IMG/VR virus record: IMGVR_UViG_3300049846_000961
Location: 1 to 25,004 of that record
Reading direction: 5' to 3' (one strand)
From: a virus
Length of the DNA stretch: 25,004 nucleotides
In this document: positions 20,364-24,335 of the stretch, piece after piece
Numbering within the stretch: position 1 is the first letter of the stretch
How the letters are laid out: each line of letters begins with the position of its first letter
Program-made: the position numbers and the translations under genes
Notes under the pieces: model-generated
The model's input: only the letters and a program-made list of their open reading frames with translations
What the model was told of the DNA's origin: nothing
Database searches by the model: none

Positions 20364-20387
20364 AAAAAAAGGGGTGCATAAGCACCC
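20364..20387 (-). terminator. Intrinsic terminator of ParB-like gene
   Basis: Minus strand GGGTGC, loop TTAT, GCACCC, then CTTTTTTTATT. It begins 12 bases after the stop codon at 20400. The clearest terminator in the right half. Confidence 0.92.
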
Positions 20388-20399
20388 TTGAATAGTTAC

Positions 20400-21398
20400 T
20401 CAACTATTGACGATAATCATATCAGTCTCAACATTAGTAACTTGACCCATCCATTTCTCAAGTTTAAGAAGTTTGAACTCTTCACCATCAGTTTCTGCTG
20501 CTTTATAAAGCATCAAAACATTGTTGATTTTTTTGTTATATTCATCAACAATTTTTTTCATTTTTTGACGCTCATTATCAGCATCTTCTGCTTCACAGTT
20601 ACTAAGGAATCCAACAAGTTCAGGAAGTTTGCCTGTTTTGTTATATGTGTCAATAACATTGATAACTTCACGACAAAAATAGTGCATAGAACTGCGACTA
20701 TCTTTTACATTTACGTGCAAAGGCAACAGTGTTGTGTTGGAATCAAGATTCCTCTGTTTAATGTAATCAGAAACAGTTTTTTTGTTATAAGGTGACATTG
20801 TATCAGATACACGTTTACCTTGAATAACTGATTTAACTGCATCTGCAATTTCTTTATCGGAGAAACTGTGATTAAAAGTATTAAACCATTCAATACCCTT
20901 TACAGCATCAAATTGGTCAATCCGAACAAAATACTTTTGAAGGCGGATTTTACAATCTTTCATAGTCATTGGTTTTGAGACAAGGTGATTGTTCATACCC
21001 AAACCAACCTCATCATAGACATCATCAATCGTAAAACCTTCGTTAATTTCTACACAATATACAACAACATATTGTGCTCCAATTTGACGATATGCTTCAA
21101 CACGGTTGTTACCATCAATAACAATCCCATCAGGAAGAATGATAGGAGGCATAATAGAAGTATCAACACCCTGATTAACAAAACTATATTGAAGAGTATT
21201 GACGTTATTATAGTCAATACCTTGAGAACGTGCAGGATTCAATTTTTGACCTGCATCATTCTCATTCTTTAGTTCTCCAATCTCACGGACTTGAAACCCA
21301 ATAGAATAGACGCTGTTAAACTTAGGAGTCTTACATTCATCCAAATACCATTTTACTTCTGGTTTGCCGCAAGGGAAATCAATTTTACGAAAAGTCAT
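20400..21398 (-). CDS. ParB/Spo0J-fold protein (ParB-like nuclease or NTP-binding domain)
   Basis: 332 residues. The ParB-type core is at 84-118: PPIILPDGIVIDGNNRVEAY then RQIGAQYVVVYCVEI, the D-G-N-(N/H)-R motif that in ParB/Srx-fold proteins lies at the nucleotide-binding site. Residues 138-160 (HLVSKPMTMKDCKIRL) and 178-215 (FSDKEIADAVKSV ... KTVSDYIK) may be helical DNA-binding segments. A lysine-rich helix follows near 275-300. In phages such proteins can be DNA-binding, nicking or modification accessory factors. It lies after the Dam gene but has its own promoter and terminator. Not a full chromosome-partition ParB. Confidence 0.72.
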   Translation of the reverse strand: MTFRKIDFPCGKPEVKWYLDECKTPKFNSVYSIGFQVREIGELKNENDAGQKLNPARSQGIDYNNVNTLQYSFVNQGVDTSIMPPIILPDGIVIDGNNRVEAYRQIGAQYVVVYCVEINEGFTIDDVYDEVGLGMNNHLVSKPMTMKDCKIRLQKYFVRIDQFDAVKGIEWFNTFNHSFSDKEIADAVKSVIQGKRVSDTMSPYNKKTVSDYIKQRNLDSNTTLLPLHVNVKDSRSSMHYFCREVINVIDTYNKTGKLPELVGFLSNCEAEDADNERQKMKKIVDEYNKKINNVLMLYKAAETDGEEFKLLKLEKWMGQVTNVETDMIIVNS

Positions 21399-21492: not shown

Positions 21493-21514
21493 AGGACAGT
21501 TCTCCAACTGTCCT
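21493..21514 (-). repeat. Perfect 9-bp hairpin after Dam gene
   Basis: Minus strand AGGACAGTT, loop GGAG, AACTGTCCT, beginning at the last base of the Dam stop codon. No T-run, as with most operon-end hairpins here. Confidence 0.78.
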
Positions 21515-22350
21515 CAGTACAATAAACTCTCTAAAGCATTTGGATTAGATTCCACCTTCACTTCTGGATATTTGATGATAATGAGTTCTGTTTTCTTTCC
21601 TCTGCAACTTACATCTCCTGCCATCTGATAATCAAACTCCAAATAGCGAAACTCAGTCCAATCTTTATAAAGATCTTTAAGGTAATCTGTGTTGTCATAA
21701 GACATCACGAACCCACCTTTATGTTCCTTCAAGACATCAGCAAGTTTATCGTGATTGAATCCTTCGTGAGTGCTTCCATCAATACCATAATAATATGATG
21801 TAGTTTTATAGTAAGGAGGATCCAAATACATAAAATCATTCTGATGCTTTGGGATTGTGTCAAAACAATTCCCAAAGGAGAATGAGAAGTTTGGATTGTA
21901 GAATCCGATTAACTTATGAATACCAGCAAGATTTAGATTCTTTCTGGAGGATTCTGATGTATGACCAAGATCTCCACTAAATGCACCTTTGATACAAATG
22001 TAAAACGCCCAAGCGCGAGTGAACTTATCATCACTCTCTAAAAGAGGAAGAAAAGACTTATAGTGTTCTCTATCTTTTAGAGGATAATGCTTTGCTGCTT
22101 CTTCACCCAATCTTTTTCCACCTTCTGTTGTTAGAATCTCCCAGAAGTCAGCAAGTGGTTGAAATAGATCATATGCTTGAACTTTTACACCTCTTGCTGC
22201 AAGAGCAAGTTCAATACAACCTCCACCCATAAAAGGTGACATCATATGCGTAAGATTAGGATGAATCTCATCAATAATCTTAATGATCTCATCTTTCATA
22301 GTGTTTTTACCACCAGCATAGCGGTATAAACTTGTAGAGGTATATCTCAT
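21514..22350 (-). CDS. dam: Dam-type DNA adenine-N6 methyltransferase (D12 class)
   Basis: 278 residues, usual for the Dam family (about 270). RYAGGK at 10-15 is the typical substrate/AdoMet start, and SPFMGGGCIELALAARG (38-54) is motif I. NDFMYLDPPYYKTTSYYYGI (171-190) carries the catalytic DPPY at 177-180. The C-terminus has GGFVMSYDNTDYLKDLY and a MAGDVSCRGKKTELII block (243-258). It transfers a methyl group from AdoMet to N6 of adenine, most likely in GATC or a related site. Start ATG overlaps the 59-aa gene as ATGA, so it is coupled to the helicase/nuclease operon. Confidence 0.92.
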   Translation of the reverse strand: MRYTSTSLYRYAGGKNTMKDEIIKIIDEIHPNLTHMMSPFMGGGCIELALAARGVKVQAYDLFQPLADFWEILTTEGGKRLGEEAAKHYPLKDREHYKSFLPLLESDDKFTRAWAFYICIKGAFSGDLGHTSESSRKNLNLAGIHKLIGFYNPNFSFSFGNCFDTIPKHQNDFMYLDPPYYKTTSYYYGIDGSTHEGFNHDKLADVLKEHKGGFVMSYDNTDYLKDLYKDWTEFRYLEFDYQMAGDVSCRGKKTELIIIKYPEVKVESNPNALESLLY

Positions 22351-22526
22351 ATTGGTAACTTTGCTACAGATTTTCCTTTCTTATGATCAGCAATATACTT
22401 TCGTGCAGATGATTCTGTTCTGCAAATTTTTTCTAATTGCTGACCATTATGGATAATTATATATCCTTTTTTACCAAATGGCACTGCAGCATATTCACCG
22501 TTCTTACCAACAATAAATCCTTCCAT
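22347..22526 (-). CDS. Small basic hypothetical protein, 59 aa
   Basis: ATG 22526 shares one base with the nuclease-like gene's stop (TGATG). Product MEGFIVGKNGEYAAVPFGKK, then GYIIIHNGQQLEKICRTESS and ARKYIADHKKGKSVAKLPI. A beta hairpin followed by a basic helix; may bind DNA or a partner subunit. Position between nuclease and methyltransferase suggests an accessory or specificity role, but that is inference. Confidence 0.75.
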   Translation of the reverse strand: MEGFIVGKNGEYAAVPFGKKGYIIIHNGQQLEKICRTESSARKYIADHKKGKSVAKLPI

Positions 22527-23038
22527 CAAAACCCCCTTACATATTGATAATCAAACTCTTCTGCTTCTGTAAAATAGTCTTTTTCGTATTGTTCTTCATA
22601 TCCGTGAAGGAAAAAATGATCCTGTTGTGGATTACAACTTCCAGTAAGAACTGCACCAGTAAACTTAGTGTTGTAAATCATATTTGAAGGAACACAACAC
22701 GCTTTCCCAAGTTTCACATCAGTAAAAATAAAAAAGTCGGCAAGTTTTTCGTTGACAGAACTACTTGCGCGACTGTTTTTTAGAATTACACCTCTCACTG
22801 CTTCTTTTGAGACATTTTTGAACTGAATCACTTTTGATTCATATGTATGACCATCTGTTCCAATCAAATCTACACCAGGAAGATTGACACGTTTAAGTTG
22901 TCCTTTGCTATAGACATCATAACCAATCTCTACAAGTTCTCCTGCTTTTGGGAAGCGAAGATTGTTAGTAGTATAACCTTTCAAACTCCACAAGAGTTTA
23001 GAAAGTCGATCCAATTCAAATGTGTTAAAGTCGATCAT
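22526..23038 (-). CDS. PD-(D/E)xK-type nuclease-like protein, 170 aa
   Basis: The catalytic set is readable at residues 53-74: LPGVDLIGTDGHTYESKVIQ, giving Asp57 with Glu67-Ser-Lys69 (D-x9-ExK), the spacing of PD-(D/E)xK enzymes. The N-terminus is helical (FELDRLSKLLWSLKGYTT), and residues 98-110 (KLADFFIFTDVKL) supply the conserved beta strand seen after the ExK strand in many restriction enzymes. It lies 2 bases after the helicase stop and is coupled to the 59-aa gene. Likely a DNA endonuclease; specificity and activity unproven. Confidence 0.75.
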   Translation of the reverse strand: MIDFNTFELDRLSKLLWSLKGYTTNNLRFPKAGELVEIGYDVYSKGQLKRVNLPGVDLIGTDGHTYESKVIQFKNVSKEAVRGVILKNSRASSSVNEKLADFFIFTDVKLGKACCVPSNMIYNTKFTGAVLTGSCNPQQDHFFLHGYEEQYEKDYFTEAEEFDYQYVRGF

Positions 23039-23040
23039 AA

Positions 23041-24285
23041 TCAGCGTTTAATTGTAGAAATTGCAGGTTCCCCCTGTTGAAATACAGTATCGACAACACT
23101 CTGGATCTTCTTAGCAGTAGAGATTCCCACAGAGTTGAAGGTCGGGATGATGACCAGACCATACGACTTATGATAATCTTCCAATCGTCCAGGTGTCAAG
23201 TCTCCAGAGCGAAGTCGTGCAGCATCCTTGTGATGCAGTCGCACAACCCGTCCAATCGTCTGACAGATACCAATGGCATCCATAGATCGCATAAAGATTA
23301 CTGCTTCGAGTCCAGATACATTGATACCCTCAGACAGGATAGAATAATGAAGCAAAACAAACTTCTTAGAGTCATCACGACTCCAATCGTGCAAAGTATC
23401 AAAGAACTGCTCACGATTTACCTTCTGTCCATCAATGATTGCACCAGTCTTAGATGTAATGACCATCCAAGAATATCCACGATCTTCGAGTTCCTGACAG
23501 AACCCAGTTTGTGAGATTAGATTGGTGATTTGTTTGGTTGCTTTGGCACACACAAGCACCTTAGAAACTTCTGCTTCATCAATACTTTCCAGCAGATGAT
23601 TACAGTCACGCTCAAATACATTATTGCTGTCCAAAGACACTTGTTTGGCAACAATCTTGGGAGGGATAATGTAACCTTCTCGCACCATACGGGGAGCGGG
23701 AACATTTGCGATGATGTTACCATAAACCTGAGTATTGTTCATCCCAGGTTTTTTGGGAGTGGAAGAATACTTTGGAGTTGCAGTGTAGAAATAGCAACGA
23801 TCCGCTTTCCTGCTGAAGTATTCAGTAGCAACATAGAAGTTCTTCTGCACACTGTTATGTGCTTCATCAAAGTGAATTGTGTTCACCTTGATTCCTGCTT
23901 CCATAATTTTATGAAGGGAATGATATGTGGTGAAGATTAGTTTGTGTTTAGGAGCATCAGGATTAAATGCAACTCTCACTATCTGATCCCAGTGCTGAAT
24001 CTCTGCAGGTTTAGTGGTGCTGAAATGATGCGTTTCTCCAGAGTGAACGTGAAGAACAGCAACATTATCAATGTGCTCAAGATACTCAGAAGAGAGTTGA
24101 TTCGCAAGCAAAATGCGAGGAGCAACAACAACAACAGTTTGTGGAGTTTCTTTCAAGAACTCTCTTATTGTGTCACCAATACCCACAAGAGTCTTACCTG
24201 CTCCTGTCGTTGCACAGATAATACCTTTAGGATGAATCTCAGTCGCATCAAGACATTCATTCTGATGATCGCGAAAGGGAATCAT
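23041..24285 (-). CDS. Superfamily 2 DEAH-box helicase, type III restriction-like
   Basis: 414 residues. FRDHQNECLDA (4-14) is a Q-like motif; ATTGAGKT (25-32) is Walker A; VAPRILLANQ (55-64) is Ia. HFDEAHNS (138-145) is Walker B (DEAH), YTATPK (167-172) is motif III, SEGINVSG (318-325) is motif V and QTIGRVVRL (342-350) is motif VI. This is a complete ATP-driven DNA/RNA helicase or translocase core of the type found in restriction R subunits and in phage UvsW-like proteins. First gene of the operon leading to the nuclease and Dam genes, so a translocase for that nuclease is plausible. Confidence 0.9.
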   Translation of the reverse strand: MIPFRDHQNECLDATEIHPKGIICATTGAGKTLVGIGDTIREFLKETPQTVVVVAPRILLANQLSSEYLEHIDNVAVLHVHSGETHHFSTTKPAEIQHWDQIVRVAFNPDAPKHKLIFTTYHSLHKIMEAGIKVNTIHFDEAHNSVQKNFYVATEYFSRKADRCYFYTATPKYSSTPKKPGMNNTQVYGNIIANVPAPRMVREGYIIPPKIVAKQVSLDSNNVFERDCNHLLESIDEAEVSKVLVCAKATKQITNLISQTGFCQELEDRGYSWMVITSKTGAIIDGQKVNREQFFDTLHDWSRDDSKKFVLLHYSILSEGINVSGLEAVIFMRSMDAIGICQTIGRVVRLHHKDAARLRSGDLTPGRLEDYHKSYGLVIIPTFNSVGISTAKKIQSVVDTVFQQGEPAISTIKR

Positions 24286-24306: not shown

Positions 24307-24335
24307 ATCATACCAGGAATTTGGTGCTGTGGCAA
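24307..24335 (-). promoter_or_regulatory. Extended -10 sigma70 promoter for helicase operon
   Basis: TTGCCA (24335-24330), 17-base spacer ending in TGG, then TATGAT (24312-24307), so an extended -10 (TGGTATGAT). Only about 21 bases separate the -10 from ATG 24285; no ribosome site is seen, so initiation may be near-leaderless. Confidence 0.7.

What the first reader, a model, noticed from the sequence alone, without database searches (positions are those of the whole stretch)
21514..24285. Four-gene phage operon: SF2 helicase, PD-(D/E)xK nuclease, 59-aa protein, Dam methyltransferase
Seen: complete helicase motifs, a D-x9-ExK nuclease signature, and RYAGGK/DPPY of Dam, all packed with 1-4 base overlaps or a 2-base gap and one promoter. 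Known: helicase-type R subunits, nucleases and methyltransferases work together in restriction-modification. Inference: the phage carries a compact split R-M-like system to attack unmodified host or rival DNA while Dam protects its own. The order and the small partner protein do not match a standard type I, II or III system that I can name.
Basis: partly seen in the sequence, partly recalled or inferred. Interest (0 to 1): 0.78.

Follow-up and report, generated by a model that had tools for sequence, protein, structure and literature searches.

The report
Phage nuclease beside helicase and methyltransferase
A marine cyanobacterial virus carries a restriction-type DNA-cutting enzyme of a poorly known family beside a helicase and a DNA methyltransferase, at a place where related viruses often keep such cutting and protecting enzymes, which suggests a built-in weapon against unprotected DNA that has not been tested.

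Summary
The four genes exist: a UvsW-type SF2 helicase (HEL), a 170-aa nuclease (NUC), a 59/60-aa protein (S59) and a D12-class adenine methyltransferase (DAM), in a cyanomyovirus. NUC matches no listed family; its predicted fold and invariant E37/D57/E67-x-K69 support a restriction-type PD-(D/E)xK nuclease. The four genes are not a fixed unit: all four occur in 9 of 25 first NUC loci, in 7 with a gene inserted. HEL is a second UvsW-like helicase, also found without detected nuclease or methyltransferase. NUC and a distant sister family sit, often with a 4-base overlap, directly after HEL (86 loci) or directly before a dam gene (65); one locus shows neither. In 22 named genomes, 9 of 29 methyltransferase matches lie within 3 kb of HEL (1.2 expected), and other restriction-enzyme families sit there too. 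Best reading: NUC is a type II-like restriction enzyme, held off by phage methylation, in an exchangeable restriction-modification site anchored on HEL. A mobile homing-type nuclease or a HEL-NUC recombination nuclease remain possible. No activity or shared specificity was tested.

The parts
23041..24285 (-). HEL: second UvsW-like SF2 helicase (T4-GC36 of cyanophages), 414 aa, no nuclease domain found
   Evidence: PF04851/PF00271, phrog_16; a separate, higher-scoring UvsW-type gene exists in S-SM1, S-SCSM1 and contigs G002, G004, G005
22526..23038 (-). NUC: 170-aa PD-(D/E)xK-type nuclease of an unlisted family; E37, D57, E67, K69
   Evidence: no hit in PHROGs, PADLOC, NCBIfam and only chance-level Pfam hits; alignment A3; AF2 model and PDB comparison
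22832..22930 (-). codons of the catalytic signature: E37 (22928-22930), D57 (22868-22870), E67 (22838-22840), K69 (22832-22834)
   Evidence: invariant columns of A1 and A3
22347..22529 (-). S59: small beta-beta-beta-beta-alpha protein (phrog_33194), companion of HEL in this clade
   Evidence: phrog_33194 2e-6; 46 of 49 loci of the HEL scan; 69 of 80 S59 loci have HEL upstream; AF2 model pLDDT 80
21514..22350 (-). DAM: D12-class N6-adenine DNA methyltransferase, about 30% identical or less to its best named phage relatives
   Evidence: PF02086 2.1e-19; PADLOC MTase_II 1.8e-31
20400..21398 (-). ParB-like 332-aa protein (phrog_27790), possible fifth gene of the transcript; relatives lie between NUC and S59 in 7 loci
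   Evidence: phrog_27790 4.7e-35; PF18763 5.8e-4, below its cut-off
20372..20387 (-). terminator-like hairpin followed by a T run, after the ParB-like gene
   Evidence: 4 such sites in the region, 2.0 in shuffles
24307..24335 (-). promoter-like TTGCCA-17-TATGAT upstream of HEL (weak)
   Evidence: 16 promoter-like sites, 14.9 in shuffles

Best explanation
NUC is a type II-like restriction endonuclease of an unlisted PD-(D/E)xK family. It cuts DNA at a motif that a phage adenine methyltransferase protects: the neighbouring DAM here, or the dam gene near gp44 in other cyanomyoviruses. It sits in an exchangeable restriction-modification site anchored on the conserved helicase HEL, where related phages carry different methyltransferases and restriction-type nucleases. 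Likely use: destroying unmodified DNA (host chromosome or a rival phage) during infection. HEL is mainly the anchor and has a job of its own. Shown by sequence: catalytic signature, gene positions, co-inheritance with HEL, purifying selection, clustering of methyltransferases and other restriction-type genes at HEL. Inferred: cleavage, shared specificity with a methyltransferase, target.
For: PD-(D/E)xK signature invariant in 37 aligned sequences; top structural matches are restriction enzymes (NaeI Z 8.3, DpnI 8.0, NhoI 7.9). NUC and the sister family NUC77 (hhalign probability 96.5, E 1e-9) stand beside HEL in 86, before a dam-like gene in 65 and beside neither in 1 of 152 classified loci, of 161 loci taken. 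The overlap is 4 bases in 56 of 86 HEL cases and about 44 of 65 dam cases. The tree needs 4 changes between the two positions, of which well-supported branches force 2. In 22 named genomes 9 of all 29 PF02086/PF01555 matches lie within 3 kb of HEL, 1.2 expected, P 2e-6; leaving out one presumed core dam per genome, 9 of 12, 0.5 expected. Restriction-type neighbours of HEL: S-RIM14 gene directly after HEL, PADLOC REase_II 9.4e-23; GC495 upstream of HEL in S-SM1, REase_II 9.5e-16; a MutH-like gene between Dam and HEL in S-RIM8, 1.2e-7; PDDEXK_5 directly after HEL in S-BM1, 1.2e-3, below its cut-off. GC495 scan: HEL in the flank of 15 of 22 loci, a methyltransferase in 17; MutH-like scan: 5 and 7 of 8. 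NUC is under purifying selection.
Against: No cleavage or shared specificity is shown. A D12 dam-like gene is present in 17 of 22 named genomes, so its presence with NUC is weak evidence. 10 of 22 named HEL loci show neither methyltransferase nor restriction-type nuclease by annotation, the two Pfam models or my query set, 11 if the motif-only ACG-2014d gene is not counted; in the HEL scan 20 of 56 loci have a methyltransferase and 12 have NUC or NUC77 within 3 kb. HEL and NUC distances agree over 37 loci (Mantel r 0.83, 0 of 5000), which equally fits a HEL partner. GIY-YIG, HNH and endonuclease VII genes use the same HEL-S59 slot, which fits homing. 16 of 25 NUC loci show no DAM relative, though several end early. 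Two GC495 loci (L403, L407) and one S-RIM14-type locus (L380) have 4 kb on both sides and no HEL. GATC is neither specially depleted nor kept (o/e 0.70 in the window). The 22 genomes are related and the scans partly hold the same named phages, so the P values overstate. Structural matches are modest (best Foldseek E 4e-3, none under 1e-3).
Confidence: 0.47

Rival explanations
1. NUC is a free-standing PD-(D/E)xK homing-type endonuclease: a mobile gene that cuts alleles lacking it, inserted between HEL and S59 or just before dam. The four genes are then neighbours by insertion only.
For: Empty sites exist: S59 follows HEL directly with a 4-base overlap in 10 NUC-less loci. The slot also takes GIY-YIG, HNH and endonuclease VII genes; HNH-like genes also lie near the dam-side copies L126 and L165. 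L102: HEL differs by 41% from the window-type contig but NUC by only 15%. Against L004, NUC dS is 0.75 while HEL, S59 and DAM are 0.23-0.29. I-Ssp6803I, a PD-(D/E)xK homing enzyme, is in the match list, Z 6.5. Among 50,697 phage records only S-SM1 (two records) has NUC and none NUC77. Homing genes are reported to sit near essential phage genes (PMC10448857, abstract and passages).
Against: Frequent 4-base overlap, unlike the GIY/HNH/EndoVII genes, most of which start about 60-120 bases after HEL. Co-inheritance with HEL, purifying selection, few broken copies seen, and the clustering of methyltransferases and restriction-type families at the same place.
Confidence: 0.26
2. HEL and NUC form a structure-specific helicase-nuclease pair for branched recombination or replication intermediates (like Hef, or an Hjc-type resolvase with a branch-migration motor).
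For: HEL is UvsW-like; NUC or NUC77 directly follows HEL in 86 loci, with matching distances in 37; Hjc resolvases are among the structural matches, Z 6.2.
Against: 65 loci have NUC or NUC77 beside dam, not HEL; the 207-kb contig G005 has HEL elsewhere without NUC. HEL relatives match 421 phage records, NUC two records of one phage. It does not explain the methyltransferases.
Confidence: 0.15
3. A helicase-powered split restriction system (type I/III-like), with S59 as a connector.
For: Window order HEL-NUC-S59-DAM with overlaps; HEL matches ResIII.
Against: The four genes are rarely together (9 of 25); HEL-S59 occurs without NUC and DAM; HEL is 414 aa with only helicase domains matched.
Confidence: 0.07

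Closest known systems
Type II restriction-modification with a PD-(D/E)xK enzyme (DpnI, NaeI, NhoI, PvuII by fold)
   Same: Predicted fold and E/D/ExK signature; nuclease gene beside an adenine methyltransferase gene; the HEL site is shared with genes that PADLOC calls type II restriction enzymes
   Different: No sequence match to any listed family; anchored on a phage helicase; specificity and cleavage unknown
Virus-carried R-M of chloroviruses and marseilleviruses (PMC7253447, abstract and passages)
   Same: A virus codes for both a restriction enzyme and an adenine methyltransferase, used against host DNA (chloroviruses) or, as that paper suggests, against competitors (marseilleviruses)
   Different: Those infect eukaryotes; here bacterial viruses with several versions at one helicase locus, untested
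I-Ssp6803I (PD-(D/E)xK homing endonuclease) and free-standing phage homing genes
   Same: Fold match Z 6.5; optional gene between two conserved genes
   Different: Frequent 4-base overlaps, two preferred neighbours (HEL, dam), long co-inheritance with HEL
T4-type UvsW helicase
   Same: HEL matches the same PHROG (phrog_16)
   Different: HEL is a second gene; S-SM1 and other genomes also have a higher-scoring UvsW-type gene
P-SSM2 HEL(GC36)-58-aa gene(GC37)-dam(GC38); S-SSM5 and P-RSM4 GC495-GC467-GC622-HEL-GC38
   Same: HEL flanked by methyltransferases, with small or nuclease-type genes
   Different: GC38 matches PF01555, not D12; GC37 did not match the S59 profile; no NUC

Membership tests
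PD-(D/E)xK nuclease superfamily | conserved acidic residues and ExK motif in the restriction-type alpha/beta core | tested here: met
   E37, D57, E67-x-K69 invariant; fold matches at modest scores
Type II restriction-modification | restriction-type nuclease gene beside a methyltransferase gene | tested here: met
   window; 65 of 152 classified NUC/NUC77 loci directly before a dam-like gene
Type II restriction-modification | nuclease and methyltransferase share one DNA motif; the nuclease cuts only unmodified DNA | not testable with these tools
   needs methylome and cleavage assay
Type I or III restriction | motor and nuclease domains in one R/Res subunit | tested here: not met
   HEL 414 aa, helicase domains only; NUC is a separate gene
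Type I restriction | specificity subunit HsdS | tested here: inconclusive
   no such family among the 10 window proteins scanned; the other window ORFs were not scanned
Free-standing homing endonuclease | optional gene between two conserved genes, with empty alleles | tested here: met
   HEL-S59 with and without NUC
Free-standing homing endonuclease | cuts the empty allele and is copied into it | not testable with these tools
   needs cleavage assay and mixed infection
I-Ssp6803I-like homing enzymes | same fold subgroup | tested here: inconclusive
   2ost Z 6.5, below several restriction enzymes
Holliday-junction resolvase Hjc | same fold, cleavage of four-way junctions | tested here: inconclusive
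   2wj0 Z 6.2; no activity test
Known anti-phage defence systems (PADLOC-DB 2.0.0) | match of the nuclease to a system component | tested here: not met
   NUC: none at E up to 1; HEL best PbeA 2.9e-10 over part of the profile
Dam family (TIGR00571) | score above the curated cut-off | tested here: not met
   57.3 bits against 114.85
UvsW (T4) | the phage's UvsW gene itself | tested here: not met
   S-SM1, S-SCSM1 and contigs G002, G004, G005 carry a separate, higher-scoring UvsW-type gene beside HEL; the window's own genome is a fragment

The most novel reading that the evidence does not exclude
Cyanomyoviruses share one modular weapon in which the conserved helicase HEL is the common motor and exchangeable nucleases (NUC, NUC77, MutH-like, REase_II types) and methyltransferases are its swappable target-choosing parts, so that competing phages carry different cut-and-protect specificities on the same chassis.
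Probability: 0.12. Interest if true: 0.88.

Novelty: new variant of a known kind. Interest (0 to 1): 0.62.

Why it matters
If NUC is a restriction enzyme, tailed phages of abundant marine photosynthetic bacteria carry cut-and-protect enzyme pairs, in several versions at one genome site. That would give a direct route to host-DNA breakdown (nucleotide supply) or to killing of co-infecting phages, and a reason for the adenine methyltransferases that many cyanomyoviruses carry. It also marks out a small nuclease family, 161 loci taken here, that the four family libraries searched do not hold. Named isolates (S-SM1, S-RIM14, S-RIM8, S-SSM5) make it testable with laboratory strains.

Tried and rejected
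Rejected: HEL as the phage's UvsW (a separate UvsW-type gene exists in relatives). Rejected: the four genes as a fixed operon. Rejected: S59 as a dedicated nuclease adaptor (in the HEL scan it follows HEL mostly without NUC). Left open: homing, resolvase. GC37 of P-SSM2 as an S59 relative: no match at E up to 10; the 74-aa protein of S-SCSM1 looked similar by eye but the profile gave E 0.51.

Led nowhere: NUC and NUC77 profiles against PDB sequences (best E 0.25 and 0.18, unrelated); HEL by phmmer (none); S-BM1 and S-RIM8 nucleases by phmmer (none); S59 structure comparison (best Z 4.8, no clear relative; T4 UvsW.1, which I had in mind from memory, is not listed); genome-contig scans with A4 and A3 (88 and 192 stretches, no relative confirmed); NUC77 in phages (none); palindrome counts as a hint of specificity (not informative). 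Nine literature searches showed no title on this locus; I saw listings (15 of 22 hits, all hits in the others), and most subscription journals are not held.

Limits: loci within one set include near-identical phages, and the GC495 and MutH-like scans include copies of named isolates. The 22 named loci are S-SM1, S-SCSM1 and 20 that I chose from the 60 rows shown of 421. 'Core dam' was checked between gp44 and gp62 only in S-SM1 and S-SCSM1 and read in some dam-side contigs; elsewhere it is presumed, hence the count over all 29 matches. GC467 is annotated as a methyltransferase but had no Pfam hit and is not in these counts. The nuclease reading of the ACG-2014g, ACG-2014d and S-BM1_185 genes rests on motifs recalled by me (REase_II 0.03 for S-BM1_185); Syn33's gene is called endonuclease by its record and phrog_3978. 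In making this final version I corrected a count (16, not 13, of 25 NUC loci without a DAM relative) and added the count over all methyltransferase matches; I moved the odds of the restriction reading from 0.48 to 0.47 and of homing from 0.25 to 0.26.
Full report
What is there. The window is a 25,004-base virus record with T4-type baseplate genes; its best DNA matches are Synechococcus and Prochlorococcus phages. The four genes of the finding exist at the stated coordinates with the stated packing. HEL matches ResIII, Helicase_C and phrog_16. DAM is a D12-class adenine methyltransferase that does not reach the curated Dam cut-off; its listed phage matches are about 30% identical or less. NUC has no family in PHROGs, PADLOC or NCBIfam and only chance-level Pfam hits. 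A ParB-like gene follows, with a terminator-like hairpin after it, so a five-gene transcript is possible.

NUC is a restriction-type nuclease by signature and predicted fold. E37, D57, E67 and K69 are invariant in 37 aligned sequences, window included. The AF2 model has mean pLDDT 81 and pTM 0.81, though only two of five models reach that level. Structural matches are NaeI 1iaw (Z 8.3, 139 residues, rmsd 4.1), DpnI 4kyw (8.0, 118, 2.9), NhoI 8rpx (7.9, 106, 3.2), I-Ssp6803I 2ost (6.5, 109, 3.8) and Hjc 2wj0 (6.2, 94, 2.9). The tool warns that Z under 8 may mean only a common arrangement; Foldseek's best E is 4e-3. The list is coherent for the fold but does not choose between restriction, homing and resolvase.

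HEL is not UvsW. S-SM1 has a UvsW-type gene at 117353-118927 and HEL at 42272-43519; S-SCSM1 and contigs G002, G004 and G005 also have both. HEL relatives match 421 phage records; of the 60 rows shown by even steps, all but the last are at 40% identity or more.

The four genes are not a unit. In the first NUC scan (25 loci) all four genes occur in 9 loci, in 7 of them with a ParB-like gene between NUC and S59; 16 show no DAM relative, several because they end early. Where NUC is absent, S59 follows HEL directly with a 4-base overlap (10 loci), or GIY-YIG, HNH, endonuclease VII or other genes lie between. S59-like genes lie within 3 kb after HEL in 46 of 49 loci of the HEL scan, 55 of 70 of the second NUC scan and 2 of 10 of the NUC77 scan; HEL lies upstream of 69 of 80 S59 loci, 8 of the other 11 having little sequence upstream. 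In contigs L026 and L027 only the two ends of NUC remain.

NUC has two addresses. A second NUC scan (best 80 of 84 kept) plus S-SM1, and a scan with the distant family NUC77 (best 80 of 84 kept; homology by hhalign 96.5%, E 1e-9 over 111 columns) gave 161 loci. Of 155 with a full-length gene, 86 have it directly after HEL, 65 directly before a dam-like gene, 1 neither (L264), and 3 end too soon to say. The start overlaps the HEL stop by 4 bases in 56 of 86; the dam start overlaps the NUC stop by about 4 in 44 of 65. In S-SM1 and S-SCSM1 this dam lies between gp44 and gp62. On a 69-row tree the HEL/dam label needs 4 changes; well-supported branches force 2. Over 37 dereplicated HEL-side loci, HEL and NUC distances agree (Mantel r 0.83, 0.80 without S-SM1, 0 of 5000 shuffles), with one clear transfer, L102. 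dN/dS of NUC is 0.055-0.141 in 6 comparisons. Against L004, NUC has dS 0.75 while HEL, S59 and DAM have 0.23-0.29, and the last part of HEL is also less alike, so this stretch has partly its own history.

The HEL site is a restriction-modification site. I looked at HEL in 22 named phages. PF02086 and PF01555 over the whole genomes gave 29 matches (21 and 8); 9 of these 29, in 9 phages, lie within 3 kb of HEL, 1.2 expected (P 2e-6 if independent, which they are not fully). Leaving out one presumed core dam in each of 17 genomes (83 kb or more from HEL in linear coordinates), it is 9 of 12, 0.5 expected. In the IMG/VR HEL scan 20 of 56 loci have a methyltransferase of my query set within 3 kb and 12 have NUC or NUC77. 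Nucleases beside HEL: S-RIM14_056 directly after HEL (REase_II 9.4e-23); GC495 in S-SM1 (REase_II 9.5e-16), with relatives just before GC467 in S-SSM5 and P-RSM4; a MutH-like gene between Dam and HEL in S-RIM8 (1.2e-7); PDDEXK_5 in S-BM1 (1.2e-3, below cut-off); an 'endonuclease' PHROG in Syn33. In contig L106 HEL-NUC is followed by a gene weakly like HinfI (0.024) and a D12 methyltransferase. Scans: GC495 family 22 loci, HEL in 15, methyltransferase in 17; MutH-like 8 loci, HEL in 5, methyltransferase in 7; S-RIM14 type 3 loci, HEL in 1, methyltransferase in 1; of the 12 loci without HEL, 3 (L380, L403, L407) have 4 kb on both sides, the others less on at least one side. 10 of the 22 named loci show neither a methyltransferase nor a restriction-type nuclease by annotation, the two models or my queries, so HEL seems to have a life without them.

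Reading. NUC beside dam in one set of phages, and in the HEL site with other restriction-type genes in another, is what one expects of a restriction enzyme whose protecting methyltransferase is either next to it or elsewhere in the genome. Virus-coded R-M is known in chloroviruses and marseilleviruses (PMC7253447, abstract and passages). The homing reading keeps real support, because the same slot takes homing-type genes and because homing genes lie near essential phage genes (PMC10448857, abstract and passages; PMC6083498, passages). A table in Sullivan 2010, seen as a passage, appears to list an N6A-methylase and a helicase among genes found in 14 of 16 cyanophages (PMC3037559). A passage view of the S-CREM2 paper (PMC10665884) mentions its dam but no such locus. 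None of the titles listed in nine searches was on this locus.

Noticed in passing
window 1-25004: AGCT occurs once and CATG three times in the whole window (observed/expected 0.02 and 0.05), a strong avoidance that hints at host or rival restriction of these motifs.
   Followed up: no
window 20400-21398; L004 5335-6336: A ParB-like family (phrog_27790) recurs around HEL: after DAM here, between NUC and S59 in 7 loci, before HEL in P-SSM2 (GC35).
   Followed up: partly
L026 8001-8176, L027 2248-2423: NUC reduced to its two ends, a broken remnant directly after HEL.
   Followed up: no
L081 4173-4709 and relatives: A 179-aa family of unknown function is the nearest recognised gene before S59 in 20 of 80 S59 loci, 17 of them with HEL visible upstream.
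   Followed up: no
L373 1442-2927 (S-RIM8): Dam followed by a MutH-like gene directly before HEL: a possible cut-and-protect pair in a named isolate.
   Followed up: partly
L016 9285-10385: A second SF2 helicase (34% to HEL) lies about 1.3 kb after HEL in this contig.
   Followed up: no
L264 2998-3513: A NUC77 relative (58%) in a different-looking phage, near a gene that I read as RecB-like, without HEL or dam found nearby.
   Followed up: no
L038 2779-3366: A 196-aa protein after S59, related to NUC77 (33% over part), with an ExK motif.
   Followed up: no
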